A DNA stretch of 64,000 bases. Source: a virus. The position numbers and the translations under genes are program-made. Within the stretch, counting starts at the first letter, position 1, and each line of letters starts with the position of its first letter. Below the pieces are notes generated by a model. The model searched no databases and was not told where the DNA came from. It was given only the letters and a program-made list of their open reading frames with translations. This document shows, piece after piece, positions 47,682 through 64,000 of the stretch. The stretch spans positions 1-64,000 of the IMG/VR virus record IMGVR_UViG_3300047497_000260, one strand, 5' to 3'.

Positions 47682-48423
47682 GACGCACTCCCTTGGGTTG
47701 CGGCCTCGATATCCGCTAGGCGCTTCATGTCGGCGAGCGCCGCTTTGTTGGACGTGTAGAAGTCCGGCAACCGATCAATACCGGGGTCGCTGGCGAGATA
47801 AATCTGCATCGCCGCAGATGCCGTTCCGACCTTACTTTCGAGGGCCGCCCCTTCTGCGCCAGCAAGAGCGACAGCCCATCCGGCGCGACAATGAGCCGTG
47901 CCGCAGTTGTTATGCCAAACGCTCATATCGAGAGCGTTTGGCGCGCTCGCGGCGGCGTATGGATATTCTCGATTTTTGGAGCGCCGCTCAGGACCGCGTT
48001 TCTCAGGTCCGCGCCGCTCAGGACCGCGTTTCTCAGGTCCGCGCCGCTCAGGACCGCGCCGCTCAGGGCCGCGTTTCTCAGGCCCGCGCTTCTCAGGACC
48101 GCGTTTCTCAGGACCGCGTTTCTCAGGTCCGCGCCGCTCAGGTCCGCGCTTCTCAGGTCCGCGCCGCTCAGGTCCGCGCTTCTCAGGTCCACGCCGCTCA
48201 GGTCCGCGCCGCTCAGGGCCGCGCCGCTCAGGGCCGCGCCGATCAGGTCCGCGTCGCTCAGGTCCGCGCCGATCAGGTCCGCGTCGCTCAGGTCCGCGCC
48301 GATCTTGATTGCCCATTTTACAGACAGACCAATCTTGATTGAGGTCGGCGCATCTTCCGCGCATGAGATTTCTGCGGCAAAACTGACGCGGCCTGACCGG
48401 CGGTTGAGTATGTCAAATTTCAT
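47678..48423 (-). pseudogene. Frameshifted pentapeptide-repeat protein
   Basis: From ATG 48423 (SD AAAGGG upstream) the frame encodes about 120 residues of A(D/N)L-type pentapeptide repeats (SGADLSGVDLRSADL...), then stops soon after PKIENIH at about 47925. The following frame supplies the missing C-terminal domain (APNALDMSVWHNNCGTAHCRAGWA... KAALADMKRLADIEAAT), ending at 47678. An indel near 47960 has broken one gene into two. Intact relatives have the same repeat plus GTxHCRAGW end domain. Probable beta-helix structural protein in its intact form. Confidence 0.75.
47695..47742. repeat. 48-bp direct repeat, copy 1
   Basis: Identical to 48466..48513 and encodes the end of the pentapeptide protein (ALADMKRLADIEAAT). 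Copies are 771 bp apart, in the same orientation, flanking the whole pentapeptide gene. Recombination between them would delete it. Confidence 0.85.
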
Positions 48424-59968: not shown

Positions 59969-60192
59969 GCGCCGCCCGCAATCCCTACGGCGAGCGGACG
60001 ACCTATAATCGCGTCCTCGACCTCTGGGCCGCCGAGGCCTCCGGCGCCGAAATCGCCGCCCGGCTCGGCCTCAACCTCAGCTACGTCAAGCGCCTCATCA
60101 GCGAGGGCCGCGAGGAGGGCGACAGCCGCGCCCTGCGCCGCAAGGCCGCGCCCGTCACGCTGGCGCGGACGTCGGCGGGAGGCCGGCGATGA
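59965..60192 (+). CDS. Small HTH protein, 75 aa
   Basis: MSAARNPYGERTTYNRVLDLWAAEASGAEIAARLGLNLSYVKRLISEGREEGDSRALRRKAAP. The central VLDLWAAEASGAEIAARLGLNLSYVKRLISEGREE is a sigma-70-region-4-like or homeodomain HTH. Basic tail. Probably a regulator in the rightward operon. ATGA overlaps on both sides. Confidence 0.65.
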   Translation: MSAARNPYGERTTYNRVLDLWAAEASGAEIAARLGLNLSYVKRLISEGREEGDSRALRRKAAPVTLARTSAGGRR

Positions 60193-60443
60193 AGAGCGAC
60201 GCCATCAATCTGCTGCGCGTCGCCGCTGAGCGCTTCTCGCGCGAGGAAGCCCACTACGCCTTCGCCGTCTACACCCTCGCCAACAACCTCAGGCTTCTGA
60301 TGCGCAGCGAGGCGACGATCGAGGACTGGAACAAAATCTATGTCGGCGCCGATCGCGCGCCTTTCGACATCGATGCGCTGCTGCCCATCGAGGACGAAGG
60401 CGAGGATGAGGACGAGCCCGCCACCGTCGAGGAGGAAATATGA
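60189..60443 (+). CDS. Hypothetical protein, 84 aa
   Basis: MKSDAINLLRVAAERFSREEAHYAFAVYTLANNLRLLMRSEATIEDWNKIYVGADRAPFDIDALLPIEDEGEDEDEPATVEEEI, helical with an acidic tail. Unknown function. Overlapped by 4 bp at both ends. Confidence 0.55.
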   Translation: MKSDAINLLRVAAERFSREEAHYAFAVYTLANNLRLLMRSEATIEDWNKIYVGADRAPFDIDALLPIEDEGEDEDEPATVEEEI

Positions 60444-60706
60444 GCCCCGATCGGCATCCCCCCGACTCGCCCGGCATCAGGCATCCGTTCGGCGACGACG
60501 CCTTCCCCGTCTCCGAGGCGCCTGTGAAGCTCGCCAACGCGATCGCTCTGGCGCTCGCCCTGCTGCTGTTCGCCGGCCTTCTCGGCTGGCTACTTTTCGG
60601 CTGCGCCTGCGCCGCCGCTGCGCCGACCCCACGGCCGACGGCCACGCCCCTTCATCGTTCGCACGGCTGCAATTCTGCGCCCCGCTTCCCGGAGCCTCGC
60701 CCATGA
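60440..60706 (+). CDS. Single-pass membrane protein, 88 aa
   Basis: MSPDRHPPDSPGIRHPFGDDAFPVSEAPVKLANAIALALALLLFAGLLGWLLFGCACAAAAPTPRP... One strong helix at about residues 30-58 ending in Cys residues. Could be a cytoplasmic-membrane effector such as an exclusion or holin-like protein. No family recalled. Confidence 0.55.
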   Translation: MSPDRHPPDSPGIRHPFGDDAFPVSEAPVKLANAIALALALLLFAGLLGWLLFGCACAAAAPTPRPTATPLHRSHGCNSAPRFPEPRP

Positions 60707-60921
60707 AAATCACCCTCTCGAACACGACGACCGTCACCGAAATCAACGGCGTCGAGACGCGCCTGTGGGTCGGCGAGACCGAAGGCGGCGTGCAGGTCAA
60801 CGCCTTCATCGCGATGATCGCGGTCAGGAAGGACGCCGACAATTCCGCCTTCGAGCGCGAGCTCATCGAAAAGCATCCGCGCGCCGAGCTGCAGGTCTGG
60901 CCGCTGCGCATGATCCTCTAA
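60703..60921 (+). CDS. Hypothetical protein, 72 aa
   Basis: MKITLSNTTTVTEINGVETRLWVGETEGGVQVNAFIAMIAVRKDADNSAFERELIEKHPRAELQVWPLRMIL, a small beta domain plus a helix. ATG overlaps the upstream stop. The long ORF from 60340 in this frame crosses other genes and is a shadow. Unknown function. Confidence 0.6.
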   Translation: MKITLSNTTTVTEINGVETRLWVGETEGGVQVNAFIAMIAVRKDADNSAFERELIEKHPRAELQVWPLRMIL

Positions 60922-60937
60922 TCCCGGAGCCCTCGCC

Positions 60938-61444
60938 ATGCCGCAACCGCAACCCGAAAACCTCATCCCCTTCGGCGCCGATCGCGAGGCGCGGCGTCCG
61001 ATCGTCGGCCCCGGCGGCGCGACCGAGGCGGTCGACGCGCAGGATGAGGAAGCCGCCCGTCGCCGCGAGGAGGAGGCGCGCCAGCGCCGACGCCGCGACG
61101 CCGTCGCCTGGGAGGCGCGCGAGGCGCTCGCCCGCGACCAGGATTGCGACCGTCTCGCCTATGCCATCAATGTGGTCTCGGCGACCGAATTCCAGCACGG
61201 CCGCGCGGTGACCTCGCGCAAGGGCGCCTGGACGATCCTGCGGATCAAGGACCTCCTCGACGAATTGCACGCCGACGACGCGCCGGTCGTCTATCCCCAA
61301 TTCGCCGAAGGCGCCCTCGGCGGCCGCTCCGCCCTGCCGATGGCCGCGATCGAAAAGGCCCTCGGAGTTCCCTCCCCGCTGAAGCGGGACAAGCCGGAGA
61401 CGGACGAGGCGCAGGAAGCTCAGACCACGGGAGAGCCGACATGA
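60938..61444 (+). CDS. Hypothetical protein, 168 aa
   Basis: MPQPQPENLIPFGADREARRPIVGPGGATEAVDAQDEEAARRREEEARQRRRRDAVAWEAREAL, then LAYAINVVSATEFQHGRAVTSRKGAWTILRIKDLLDELHADDAPVVYPQ. A charged coiled stretch then an alpha/beta end. Gene starts 16 nt after the previous stop. Unknown function. Confidence 0.55.
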   Translation: MPQPQPENLIPFGADREARRPIVGPGGATEAVDAQDEEAARRREEEARQRRRRDAVAWEAREALARDQDCDRLAYAINVVSATEFQHGRAVTSRKGAWTILRIKDLLDELHADDAPVVYPQFAEGALGGRSALPMAAIEKALGVPSPLKRDKPETDEAQEAQTTGEPT

Positions 61445-62010
61445 GCGGGATGGAAGAGGGCGACTGGATCGAGATCACGCGCGCCAAGGGGGTTGCCGCC
61501 AAAAGCCCCAAGCCCGATTGCCGCGTCCGTATTTGCCTGTTTAAAGCTGGGGGGGGGCCAGAGCTTCGTCAGAAAGTCTATCTCAGCTTCCACGGCGCCG
61601 CTGTCGCCTGGCTGAAGACGAACGGTCCGCGGTTTCGCGTCCAGCTCGGCGCCGATCGCCTGAACCGTCTCCGCCTGCTGCCCGACGCAGCCGGCGGCTA
61701 CAGGGGCGCCGGCGAGAAGGGCGCCACGCTGATCATGGCTTTGGGCTGCGTCGCCCCTTGGCCCAAGGAAGTTCGCGCCGCGACGCCGGCGGAATTCAAG
61801 GCCTTCGCCGATCATGCGCTGATCACGCTCCCGCCCGACTGGGCGACGCCGGCCAAGGCGCAGCGCGCCGGCGCGCCGCCGCCGCGTATCATCGATCGCC
61901 GTCCGGAAGGGCCCGTCTCCCTCGGCGATCCGGCGCCCGGCCGCAGCGCCCTCGATCAGCGGCGATCCTCCGATGCGCCGGTCGTTCGCAAAGCCGGCGC
62001 GCACGCATGA
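61441..62010 (+). CDS. Hypothetical protein, 189 aa
   Basis: MSGMEEGDWIEITRAKGVAAKSPKPDCRVRICLFKAGGGPELRQKVYLSFHGAAVAWLKTNGPRFRVQLGADRLNRLRLLPDAAGGYRG... beta-rich first part with a nine-G tract (61549-61557) that encodes AGGGP. The end is Pro/Ala-rich. No known domain. The homopolymer is a likely site for slippage or base-calling error. Confidence 0.55.
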   Translation: MSGMEEGDWIEITRAKGVAAKSPKPDCRVRICLFKAGGGPELRQKVYLSFHGAAVAWLKTNGPRFRVQLGADRLNRLRLLPDAAGGYRGAGEKGATLIMALGCVAPWPKEVRAATPAEFKAFADHALITLPPDWATPAKAQRAGAPPPRIIDRRPEGPVSLGDPAPGRSALDQRRSSDAPVVRKAGAHA

Positions 62011-62032
62011 GAAATCGCCGCGAGAACGCCTC

Positions 62033-62422
62033 ATGAGTCCGACGATGCGCCGTCTCACGATCTCCGAATTTCATGCCGAAATTCGCGCCCAGGGCGTCTC
62101 GTCCCGCGAGCACGTCGCCTTCCGCTGCGTCATGTGCGGCACGATCCAGTCGGGGCGCGATTTCATCCGCGCCGGCGCGGGCGCGAGTTTCGCCGAGGTC
62201 GAGCGTTTCCTCGGCTTTTCCTGCATCGGCCGCTTCACCGACGCCGGGCCGCCCTTGCGGCCGGCCAAGGCCAATGCGGGCTGCGACTGGACGCTCGGCG
62301 GCCTCTTCCGGATCCATCGCCTCGTGGTGATCGACGAGCGCGGCGTCGAGCACCCGCGCTTCGAGCTCGCCTCGCCCGATGAGGCGCAGGCGCATGAGCG
62401 CCTGGCGTTTCAGCTTGATTAG
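62033..62422 (+). CDS. VVA0879 family protein
   Basis: 129 aa. RLTISEFHAEIRAQGVSSREHVAFRCVMCGTIQSGRDFIRAGAGASFAEVERFLGFSCIGRFTDAGPPLRPAKANAGCDWTLGGLFRIHRLVVIDERGVEHPRFELASPDEAQAHE matches this small phage family with CxxCGT...CxG...CxW cysteines that may bind zinc. Function unknown. Lies directly before the hairpin and the Avd-RT gene, i.e. in the position of a DGR target gene. Confidence 0.7.
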   Translation: MSPTMRRLTISEFHAEIRAQGVSSREHVAFRCVMCGTIQSGRDFIRAGAGASFAEVERFLGFSCIGRFTDAGPPLRPAKANAGCDWTLGGLFRIHRLVVIDERGVEHPRFELASPDEAQAHERLAFQLD

Positions 62423-62441
62423 CCGCCGCGACAGCGGCGGC
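62422..62441 (+). other. GC-rich 8-bp hairpin with GACA tetraloop before the Avd-RT gene
   Basis: GCCGCCGC-GACA-GCGGCGGC occupies most of the 33-bp gap between the VVA0879 gene's stop and the Avd-RT start. DGR target genes are followed by hairpins with 7-10 bp GC-rich stems and GRNA tetraloops, and GACA fits GRNA. It is not followed by a T-run, so it is a poor terminator. It also replaces a normal Shine-Dalgarno. Confidence 0.55.
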
Positions 62442-62455
62442 CTGCGATCGCGCCC

Positions 62456-63550
62456 ATGATCGACAGGGATGAGAACGCCGCTACCGACGCCTTGGCGATC
62501 GTCGAAAAATACGAGGTCTTTGTGAGCTATCTTTATCCGATTCTGCAGAACGCGCCGCGCAAGCACGGCGTCCTCCGCGACGCGGTGCTCGCCTCGCTTT
62601 TCGCCCCGATCGGCGGTCTCTACCACGCTGCGAAGTCGAAACAGCTGTCCCGGCTTTATGCCATCGACGCCGAATTCGCGACGCTGCGTGCATTCCTTCG
62701 CTTTCTCAGCCAGCCGAGCGTGCGGATCGTCACGCCGAGACAGCACATCTTCGATCCCAAGAAGCGGCTGATCTCCGCGCTGCCGTTCCGCGACCGGGTC
62801 GCCCAGCAGGCTTTATGCCTTATCATCGCGCCGATCTTCGACCGCGCCCTGCTGCCGCGCGCCTTTGCCTGCCGCCCGGGAAAAGGCACGCACGCAGGCG
62901 TCACGCAATTGCAGGCCGAGCTGCGCCGGCTGGCCCGCGATGGCGCGCCAGTCTATTTTCTGAAGACGGATTTTCGCGCTTATTTCGCGTCGATCCAGCG
63001 GCCGGTTCTCTGGCGTCTGATCGAGGCCAAGATATCATGCGCCGCGACGCTCGCGCTGATCGAAGCCATGGTCCCGCGACAGGGCGTCGGCCTGCCGATC
63101 GGCGCGCTGACCTCGCAGATTTTCGCCAACCTCTATGCCGGCGCGGCGCTCGATCGCTGGCTGCAGCAGACGCTGGGCGAGCGCTTCTGGTTTCGCTATA
63201 TGGACGACGTGGTCGTGCTGGGAATGAGCGCCGATCATCTTCGTCGCGTCAAGCAATCCATCGAAGACTTTTCGAAGGCCGAGCTCGGCCTGACCTTTTC
63301 GAAATGGCTGATCGCCAGCATCGCCCGCGGCGTCAATTTCCTGGGCTACCGGATATGGCCGAGCCACAAGTTGCTGCGCAAGAACAGCGTCGTTCGCGCC
63401 AGGCGCAAGATCGCCGCCTATCGGGCCGCAGGCGATGACGGGAGGATCGAAAAATTTCTCACCGCCTGGCGCGGGCACGCGCAATGGGCCGACAGCGCCA
63501 ATTTGATGCGAAGCCTCGGCCTCGCCATTGAGGGGGCGCCCTCCTCATGA
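62456..63550 (+). CDS. Avd-reverse transcriptase fusion of a diversity-generating retroelement
   Basis: 364 aa. Residues 10-97 (DALAIVEKYEVFVSYLYPILQ, then APRKHGVLRDAVLASLF and ATLRAFLRFLSQPSVRIVTPRQH) match the four-helix Avd protein. Residue 98 onward is a DGR-type RT: FDPKKRLISALPFRDRVAQQAL, FACRPGKGTH, FLKTDFRAYFASI (Asp172), GLPIGALTSQ, YMDD (Asp250/251) and GVNFLGYRI. Catalytic residues are present, but the RT lacks its usual first ~70 residues and Avd lacks its last helix. Template repeat normally between avd and RT is missing. Confidence 0.85.
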   Translation: MIDRDENAATDALAIVEKYEVFVSYLYPILQNAPRKHGVLRDAVLASLFAPIGGLYHAAKSKQLSRLYAIDAEFATLRAFLRFLSQPSVRIVTPRQHIFDPKKRLISALPFRDRVAQQALCLIIAPIFDRALLPRAFACRPGKGTHAGVTQLQAELRRLARDGAPVYFLKTDFRAYFASIQRPVLWRLIEAKISCAATLALIEAMVPRQGVGLPIGALTSQIFANLYAGAALDRWLQQTLGERFWFRYMDDVVVLGMSADHLRRVKQSIEDFSKAELGLTFSKWLIASIARGVNFLGYRIWPSHKLLRKNSVVRARRKIAAYRAAGDDGRIEKFLTAWRGHAQWADSANLMRSLGLAIEGAPSS

Positions 63551-63774
63551 GCCCGACGATCCGCCTCGCGATTCCGATCGAAGTCATCAGCCAGGAGGAG
63601 GCGGAGAAGGCGGATTTCTTCGTCTGCATCACGGCCGATAGCCCGTCGCCCTTCTCTGACAATGAGCGCGGAATCTGCTCGGGCTGCGGCGTCCCCGTCC
63701 AGTTCCGCCCGCACGCGCCGAAAAAACCTCCGCGGCTCTGCGTCGGGTGCGTCGTGAAAAGGAGCCTCAATTGA
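63547..63774 (+). CDS. Small Cys protein, zinc-ribbon-like, 75 aa
   Basis: MSPTIRLAIPIEVISQEEAEKADFFVCITADSPSPFSDNERGICSGCGVPVQFRPHAPKKPPRLCVGCVVKRSLN. Two CxxC pairs (CSGC and CVGC) make a likely zinc ribbon. ATG overlaps the RT stop (TCATGAGC), so it is translated with the RT. Common small phage protein. Confidence 0.65.
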   Translation: MSPTIRLAIPIEVISQEEAEKADFFVCITADSPSPFSDNERGICSGCGVPVQFRPHAPKKPPRLCVGCVVKRSLN

Positions 63775-63986
63775 CCGCGCCTCGCGAATTCCATTGCTGC
63801 GAATGCGGACGCCATATCATCGTGGTCGTCCCGGCCTGCGGCCAATGCGAAGCCGCCCTCTGCGCGCAATGCCTCTTCACGCCCGGCTGGTTCACCATTC
63901 CCGAGCTGCGCATGATCATCGATCCCGACCACGACGGCCGCGAGGCGATCTGGCCCGAGCCGCCGCAGCCCGTGGAGCGCCGATGA
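63771..63986 (+). CDS. Small Cys-rich protein, 71 aa, TTG start
   Basis: TTG at 63771 overlaps the upstream stop (TTGA); an ATG at 63747 is the alternative. TAPREFHCCECGRHIIVVVPACGQCEAALCAQCLFTPGWFTIPELRMIIDPDHDGREAIW. CxxC pairs (CCEC, CGQC, CAQC) suggest zinc binding. The CLxTPGWFxxPxLRxMIDPDHDG end recurs in phages of alphaproteobacteria. Unknown role. Confidence 0.6.
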   Translation: MTAPREFHCCECGRHIIVVVPACGQCEAALCAQCLFTPGWFTIPELRMIIDPDHDGREAIWPEPPQPVERR

Positions 63987-64000
63987 TGGGCGAGGCCAGA
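63983..64000 (+). CDS. Start of a further gene, cut by window end
   Basis: ATG at 63983 overlaps the stop of the previous gene (ATGA), giving MMGEAR before the window ends. The rightward operon continues beyond the window. Confidence 0.45.

What the first reader, a model, noticed from the sequence alone, without database searches (positions are those of the whole stretch)
62456..63550. A single-ORF Avd-reverse transcriptase fusion, with the template-repeat position deleted
In DGRs avd, template repeat and RT are separate. Here an Avd-like four-helix domain (residues 10-97) runs straight into the RT at FDPKKRLISALPFRDRV. The Avd loses its last helix, the RT its first ~70 residues, and nothing is left between them to hold a template. 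Yet YMDD, the SQ motif and Asp172 are intact, so the RT is not simply decaying. It may be a natural fusion with a new template, or a frozen DGR now doing something else.
Basis: partly seen in the sequence, partly recalled or inferred. Interest (0 to 1): 0.88.

Follow-up and report, generated by a model that had tools for sequence, protein, structure and literature searches.

The report
Deletion relic of a phage DGR
A phage once carried a gene-diversifying machine (a diversity-generating retroelement, DGR). Deletions removed its target gene, its template and part of its two enzymes, and by chance left the ends of two proteins joined in one open frame; similar dead remnants occur in other phages.

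Summary
ORF 62456-63550 (364 aa) is Avd residues 1-97 joined in frame to a BPP-1-type DGR reverse transcriptase that starts at bRT residue 68. The novel readings (natural functional fusion, new template) are not supported.

Close relatives (up to 82% identical in Avd, 81% in RT) keep separate avd, TR and RT genes, 335-1482 bp apart at these two points in 96 distinct sequences. Against the nearest one (L075) the window has lost about 626 bp. The junction shows 2 bp of overlap.

The target gene is gone too. Homology to the DGR begins at 62411, in the last 12 bases of the variable repeat (CAGCTTGATTAG). The canonical 8-bp GC stem with a GACA loop follows at 62422-62441. The 3' end of the lost target now forms the end of the upstream phage gene.

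No TR, VR, RT N-terminus or Avd last helix was found elsewhere in the 67.3-kb record. Seven other loci carry independent deletions in avd and/or RT, with different breakpoints. Four of six avd-RT junctions are in frame.

Best explanation: a dead DGR relic whose ORF stayed open. A retained function is unlikely but not excluded. An assembly error cannot be ruled out without reads.

The parts
62033..62422 (+). Upstream early phage gene (phrog_32023, unknown function, 129 aa) whose C-terminus now ends in ...FQLD*, taken from the lost DGR target gene
   Evidence: phrog_32023 E 1e-46, matching residues 4-120; 30 viral relatives align only up to about residue 123 and have other C-termini
62411..62422 (+). 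Remnant of the variable-repeat 3' end of the lost target gene (CAGCTTGATTAG = QLD-stop)
   Evidence: Nucleotide homology to intact DGRs begins at 62411; intact relatives end their target gene in ...HLQLD/A* at the same place
62422..62441 (+). DGR stem-loop: GCCGCCGC-GACA-GCGGCGGC (8-bp GC stem, GRNA-type loop), normally just downstream of VR
   Evidence: The only such element in the record, 0.15 expected by chance; same position in relatives; definition in PMC3240598
62456..62746 (+). Truncated avd: residues 1-97, last helix missing
   Evidence: Pfam bAvd, NCBIfam DivGenRetAVD, PDB 4dwl and 8ub7_B
62744..62747 (+). Deletion junction between avd and RT; about 626 bp missing relative to L075; 2 bp shared between the two flanks
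62747..63550 (+). Truncated DGR reverse transcriptase: equivalent to bRT residue 68 to the end, including stop; TDF, LTSQ and YMDD present
   Evidence: 8ub7_A E 1e-91; AlphaFold model of this part matches 8ub7_A with TM 0.89
63547..63774 (+). Next gene (75 aa), whose ATG overlaps the RT stop codon (ATGA)
   Evidence: two viral relatives, neither next to a DGR

Best explanation
It is the relic of a BPP-1-type diversity-generating retroelement in the early operon of a temperate phage. One deletion removed the target gene down to its last 12 bases and joined them to the gene upstream. A second deletion, at a junction with 2 bp of shared sequence, removed the last helix of Avd, the template repeat, the RNA spacer and the first 67 residues of the RT. 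The two breakpoints fell in the same codon phase, so one open frame resulted. Shown: the missing parts, the homologous flanks and other independent deletions of the same kind. Inferred: that these are real deletions, not assembly errors; their number and order; and that the product has no DGR activity. TR, spacer and VR are all absent, and published work needs TR, bRT and Avd for retrohoming. The catalytic core may still fold. Whether the fusion is translated is unknown.
For: Relatives keep separate avd and RT: 96 distinct intervening sequences of 335-1482 bp. Against L075 the window is collinear in two blocks (62411-62745 at 78%, 62744-63522 at 81%) with about 626 bp missing between them. The VR 3' end and the stem-loop are fossils of a target gene that is absent. 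No TR, VR, RT N-terminus or Avd C-terminus was found elsewhere in the record, and no repeat pair is A-biased. Independent relics have other breakpoints: L126 (Avd 1-49 to the RT thumb, in frame), L105 (Avd to RT C-terminus, in frame), L118 (in frame), L102 and L112 (out of frame), L029 (only the RT C-terminus, behind a target-gene end) and L208 (about 100 catalytic residues of RT removed in frame). In four of the five avd-retaining relics a whole-record search found only the remnant and no second RT; the fifth, L118, gave no profile match at all. Relatives of this clade also sit among early or replication genes, so the place is native. [quoted passage not shown]
Against: The fused ORF has no stop and keeps all catalytic motifs. 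The window branch shows no excess of first- and second-position changes (RT ratio 0.11 against 0.04-0.16 in others). Both facts would also fit a protein still under selection, if the deletion is old. Third positions are near saturation, so this test is weak. Four of six avd-RT junctions are in frame (chance 0.10). The record is one linear virus contig with no reads at hand.
Confidence: 0.82

Rival explanations
1. Assembly error: the phage has an intact DGR, and the assembler joined avd to RT and the upstream gene to the VR end, skipping the repeats.
For: The record is a single virus contig. TR/VR repeats and hypermutation are hard to assemble. Six of the seven other relics are also IMG/VR contigs with metagenome-type names.
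Against: Both avd-RT breakpoints lie in unique coding sequence, not in TR or VR. Other relics have different breakpoints with only 0-12 bp of shared sequence. A contig of the genome collection shows an in-frame loss of the RT core (L208).
Confidence: 0.1
2. A retained, functional Avd-RT fusion that has taken a new role (for example RNA binding or a dominant interfering protein).
For: Open frame; catalytic motifs kept; no relaxed selection seen; a slight in-frame bias among relics (4 of 6, P 0.10); ATGA overlap with the next gene.
Against: No second copy of this fusion was found: the junction peptide QHIFDPKK was one of the patterns scanned in viral and genome contigs, and no fused relative came back. 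Six positions of the lost Avd helix are invariant in relatives. In L105, L118 and L126 the RT part lacks the catalytic motifs. The first ten residues after the junction are not confidently folded in the model.
Confidence: 0.07
3. An active DGR of new design in which the fusion uses a template elsewhere in the phage or host.
For: TR in trans is conceivable and the record may be a fragment.
Against: The TR 3' spacer that recruits bRT-Avd is absent as well. No VR-bearing gene or A-biased repeat in 67.3 kb. The RT lacks its N-terminal 67 residues.
Confidence: 0.01

Closest known systems
Bordetella phage BPP-1 DGR (mtd-avd-TR-brt)
   Same: Avd and RT are direct homologues (E 3e-17 and 1e-91); same gene order and orientation; same stem-loop type downstream of VR
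   Different: Target gene, TR, spacer, Avd last helix and first 67 RT residues are missing here; avd and RT form one frame
Intact relatives in IMG/VR (L003, L004, L065, L073, L075 and others)
   Same: Up to 82% (Avd) and 81% (RT) amino-acid identity; early-region location; QLD/QLA-stop plus stem-loop before avd
   Different: They keep TR between separate avd and RT genes and, where the contig reaches that far, a target gene of about 300 aa upstream
Other deletion relics (L102, L105, L112, L118, L126, L029; L208 in a genome contig)
   Same: Internal deletion in avd and/or RT
   Different: Most keep VR and stem-loop and have lost the RT catalytic core; the window has lost the target instead and kept the catalytic core
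Degraded DGR cassettes in cyanobacteria (Anabaena, PMC7517822)
   Same: Published precedent for DGR remnants and for loss of diversification parts
   Different: There RT-only or VR-only remnants, not avd-RT junctions

Membership tests
Diversity-generating retroelement (active) | RT of the DGR clade with YMDD and LTSQ-type motif | tested here: met
   (bRT E 1e-91)
Diversity-generating retroelement (active) | Complete RT, including N-terminal region | tested here: not met
   bRT residues 1-67 absent
Diversity-generating retroelement (active) | Template repeat with A-biased mismatches to a VR | tested here: not met
   No TR/VR homology, no A-biased repeat in the record; record may be a fragment
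Diversity-generating retroelement (active) | Target gene with VR | tested here: not met
   Only the last 12 bases remain
Diversity-generating retroelement (active) | Stem-loop downstream of VR, 7-10 bp GC stem, GRNA loop | tested here: met
   62422-62441; PMC3240598
Diversity-generating retroelement (active) | Complete accessory protein Avd | tested here: not met
   Last helix with invariant MLGAW-region residues absent
Diversity-generating retroelement (active) | cDNA synthesis and retrohoming | not testable with these tools
   Needs expression or reads
Decayed DGR relic | Recognisable DGR parts, collinear with intact relatives, with essential parts deleted | tested here: met

The most novel reading that the evidence does not exclude
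Phages repeatedly shut down their DGR by in-frame internal deletion, keeping a short Avd-RT protein that is itself useful (for example to hold operon coupling or to block incoming DGRs), and the window shows such a protein with an intact catalytic core.
Probability: 0.06. Interest if true: 0.7.

Novelty: new member of a known kind. Interest (0 to 1): 0.27.

Why it matters
It explains an apparent new protein architecture as decay. It also gives a small catalogue of DGR shut-down events: of 63 phage contigs found with the Avd profile, five have an internal avd/RT deletion and a sixth has lost TR with the Avd end replaced. This makes the question of how often phages freeze or drop a DGR countable. 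DGR finders that rely on RT hits should check for such relics.

Tried and rejected
Search for a second Avd or RT in the record: only this one. TR/VR search by peptide, by DNA and by self-alignment: nothing above noise. Rfam on 60000-64000: nothing. The single-frame hit in Streptococcus phage Javan26 is annotated as a retron-type RNA-directed DNA polymerase; it was not examined further. A joint alignment of fusion, Avd and RT rows was misaligned, so only the RT part was modelled. Scans with downstream and upstream neighbour proteins gave no near relative of this phage, so the ancestral state in the same phage lineage could not be read directly. Searches failed for technical reasons. A scan of 398 genomes of the order of L060's genome found 3 avd matches; one of the three (L208) is another broken DGR.

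Full report
Observation. The ORF at 62456-63550 is real: 364 codons, no stop. The window lies in a virus record of 67,304 bases. Residues 14-97 are Avd and residues 98-351 are a DGR reverse transcriptase of the BPP-1 kind, starting at bRT residue 68. Asp172, LTSQ and YMDD are present.

Relatives. A scan of viral contigs with the fusion returned 27 loci, and none of those with a full RT is fused. The closer ones have target gene, stem-loop, avd, TR, RT in that order. Scans with an Avd profile (63 contigs) and an RT profile (80 loci) widened this. In 96 distinct sequences the distance between the two junction points is 335-1482 bp, never zero. Against L075, the nearest by DNA, the window is collinear on both sides, about 626 bp are missing, and the two alignments overlap by 2 bp. 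The breakpoints fell in the same codon phase, which happens one time in three by chance.

A second loss. Nucleotide homology to intact DGRs does not begin at avd but at 62411. CAGCTTGATTAG is the end of the variable repeat (the intact targets end HLQLD or HLQLA-stop). It is followed by GCCGCCGC-GACA-GCGGCGGC at 62422-62441. This is the stem-loop that Guo et al. 2011 (PMC3240598) describe downstream of VR: 7-10 bp GC stem, 4-base GRNA loop. It is the only one in the record, and 0.15 would be expected by chance. The upstream gene belongs to phrog_32023. Its relatives end differently, so its last residues QLD come from the lost target gene. Neither the target gene nor TR, spacer, RT N-terminus or Avd C-terminus was found elsewhere in the record, and no repeat pair shows A-biased mismatches.

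Location. The relic stands among early genes (a ParB-like protein upstream, a PLD-like protein and an integrase-like frame downstream), far from the late genes (capsid, terminase, baseplate J, tape measure). That is not unusual: intact relatives of this clade also stand among methyltransferases, ParB-like and replication-initiation genes. So the place is likely native and the element was not moved there.

Other relics. Seven further loci carry independent deletions. In L126, Avd 1-49 runs in frame into the RT thumb. In L105 and L118, Avd runs in frame into the last RT residues. L102 and L112 are the same kind of junction out of frame. L029 keeps only a target-gene end and the RT C-terminus. 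In L208, from a contig of the genome collection, about 100 RT residues including the catalytic motifs are removed in frame while avd is intact. L080 has a replaced Avd end and no TR but a full RT. Whole-record searches of the five avd-retaining relics showed no second RT (in L118 the remnant gave no profile match). Breakpoints differ, and shared sequence at the junctions is 0-12 bp. Of six avd-RT junctions, the window's included, four are in frame, which chance gives with probability 0.10. This is no evidence for selection by itself.

Is the protein still useful? RT residues that are invariant in 16 relatives are kept at 103 of 105 sites, and the ratio of first/second to third position change on the window branch (0.11) is within the range of others (0.04-0.16). 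So there is no sign of long neutral drift: the deletion is recent or the product is still constrained. Third positions are near saturation, so the test is weak. The AlphaFold model of the RT part is confident from about residue 20 of that part on and matches 8ub7_A with TM 0.89. The first ten residues after the junction, which form part of the fingers in the intact enzyme by inference, are not confidently placed. In a reconstituted BPP-1 system loss of bRT, Avd or TR brings repair by retrohoming to about 1e-9, and the spacer between TR and brt is what recruits bRT-Avd (PMC12875486). With all of these missing or cut, DGR activity is very unlikely (inference).

Known or new. I found no paper in the held library that reports avd-RT junctions of this kind, but that library is incomplete. 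Degraded DGR cassettes are published for cyanobacteria (PMC7517822). I therefore class the window as a new member of a known kind, a decayed DGR. The chance that the fusion has a function of its own is small but not excluded.

Noticed in passing
L003-L028, L065-L205 (96 distinct avd-to-RT gaps): In intact relatives the RT reading frame is open from the avd stop through TR and spacer in 73 of 96 sequences, against 3 and 2 for the other frames, and 68 of 96 gap lengths share the same remainder modulo 3. TR lies in the frame of the target. The spacer shows no codon-position signature, so this may be translational coupling from an ATGA overlap and not a coding constraint.
   Followed up: partly
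L080 (3001-3700): Avd end replaced by unrelated residues, no TR between avd and a full-length RT, and no direct repeat in the locus: a DGR without template.
   Followed up: partly
L208 (contig of the genome collection, handle G168): DGR RT with about 100 residues around YMDD removed in frame, avd intact.
   Followed up: partly
L003 (710-2586): Two tandem target genes with VR upstream of one avd-TR-RT set.
   Followed up: no
window 47981-48304: Tandem repeat array inside the minus-strand gene 47923-48423; mismatches are not A-biased.
   Followed up: no
L032 (4811-5539): A different, 36% identical DGR-like RT lies about 5 kb upstream of a relative of the window's phrog_32023 gene, with no avd found.
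   Followed up: no
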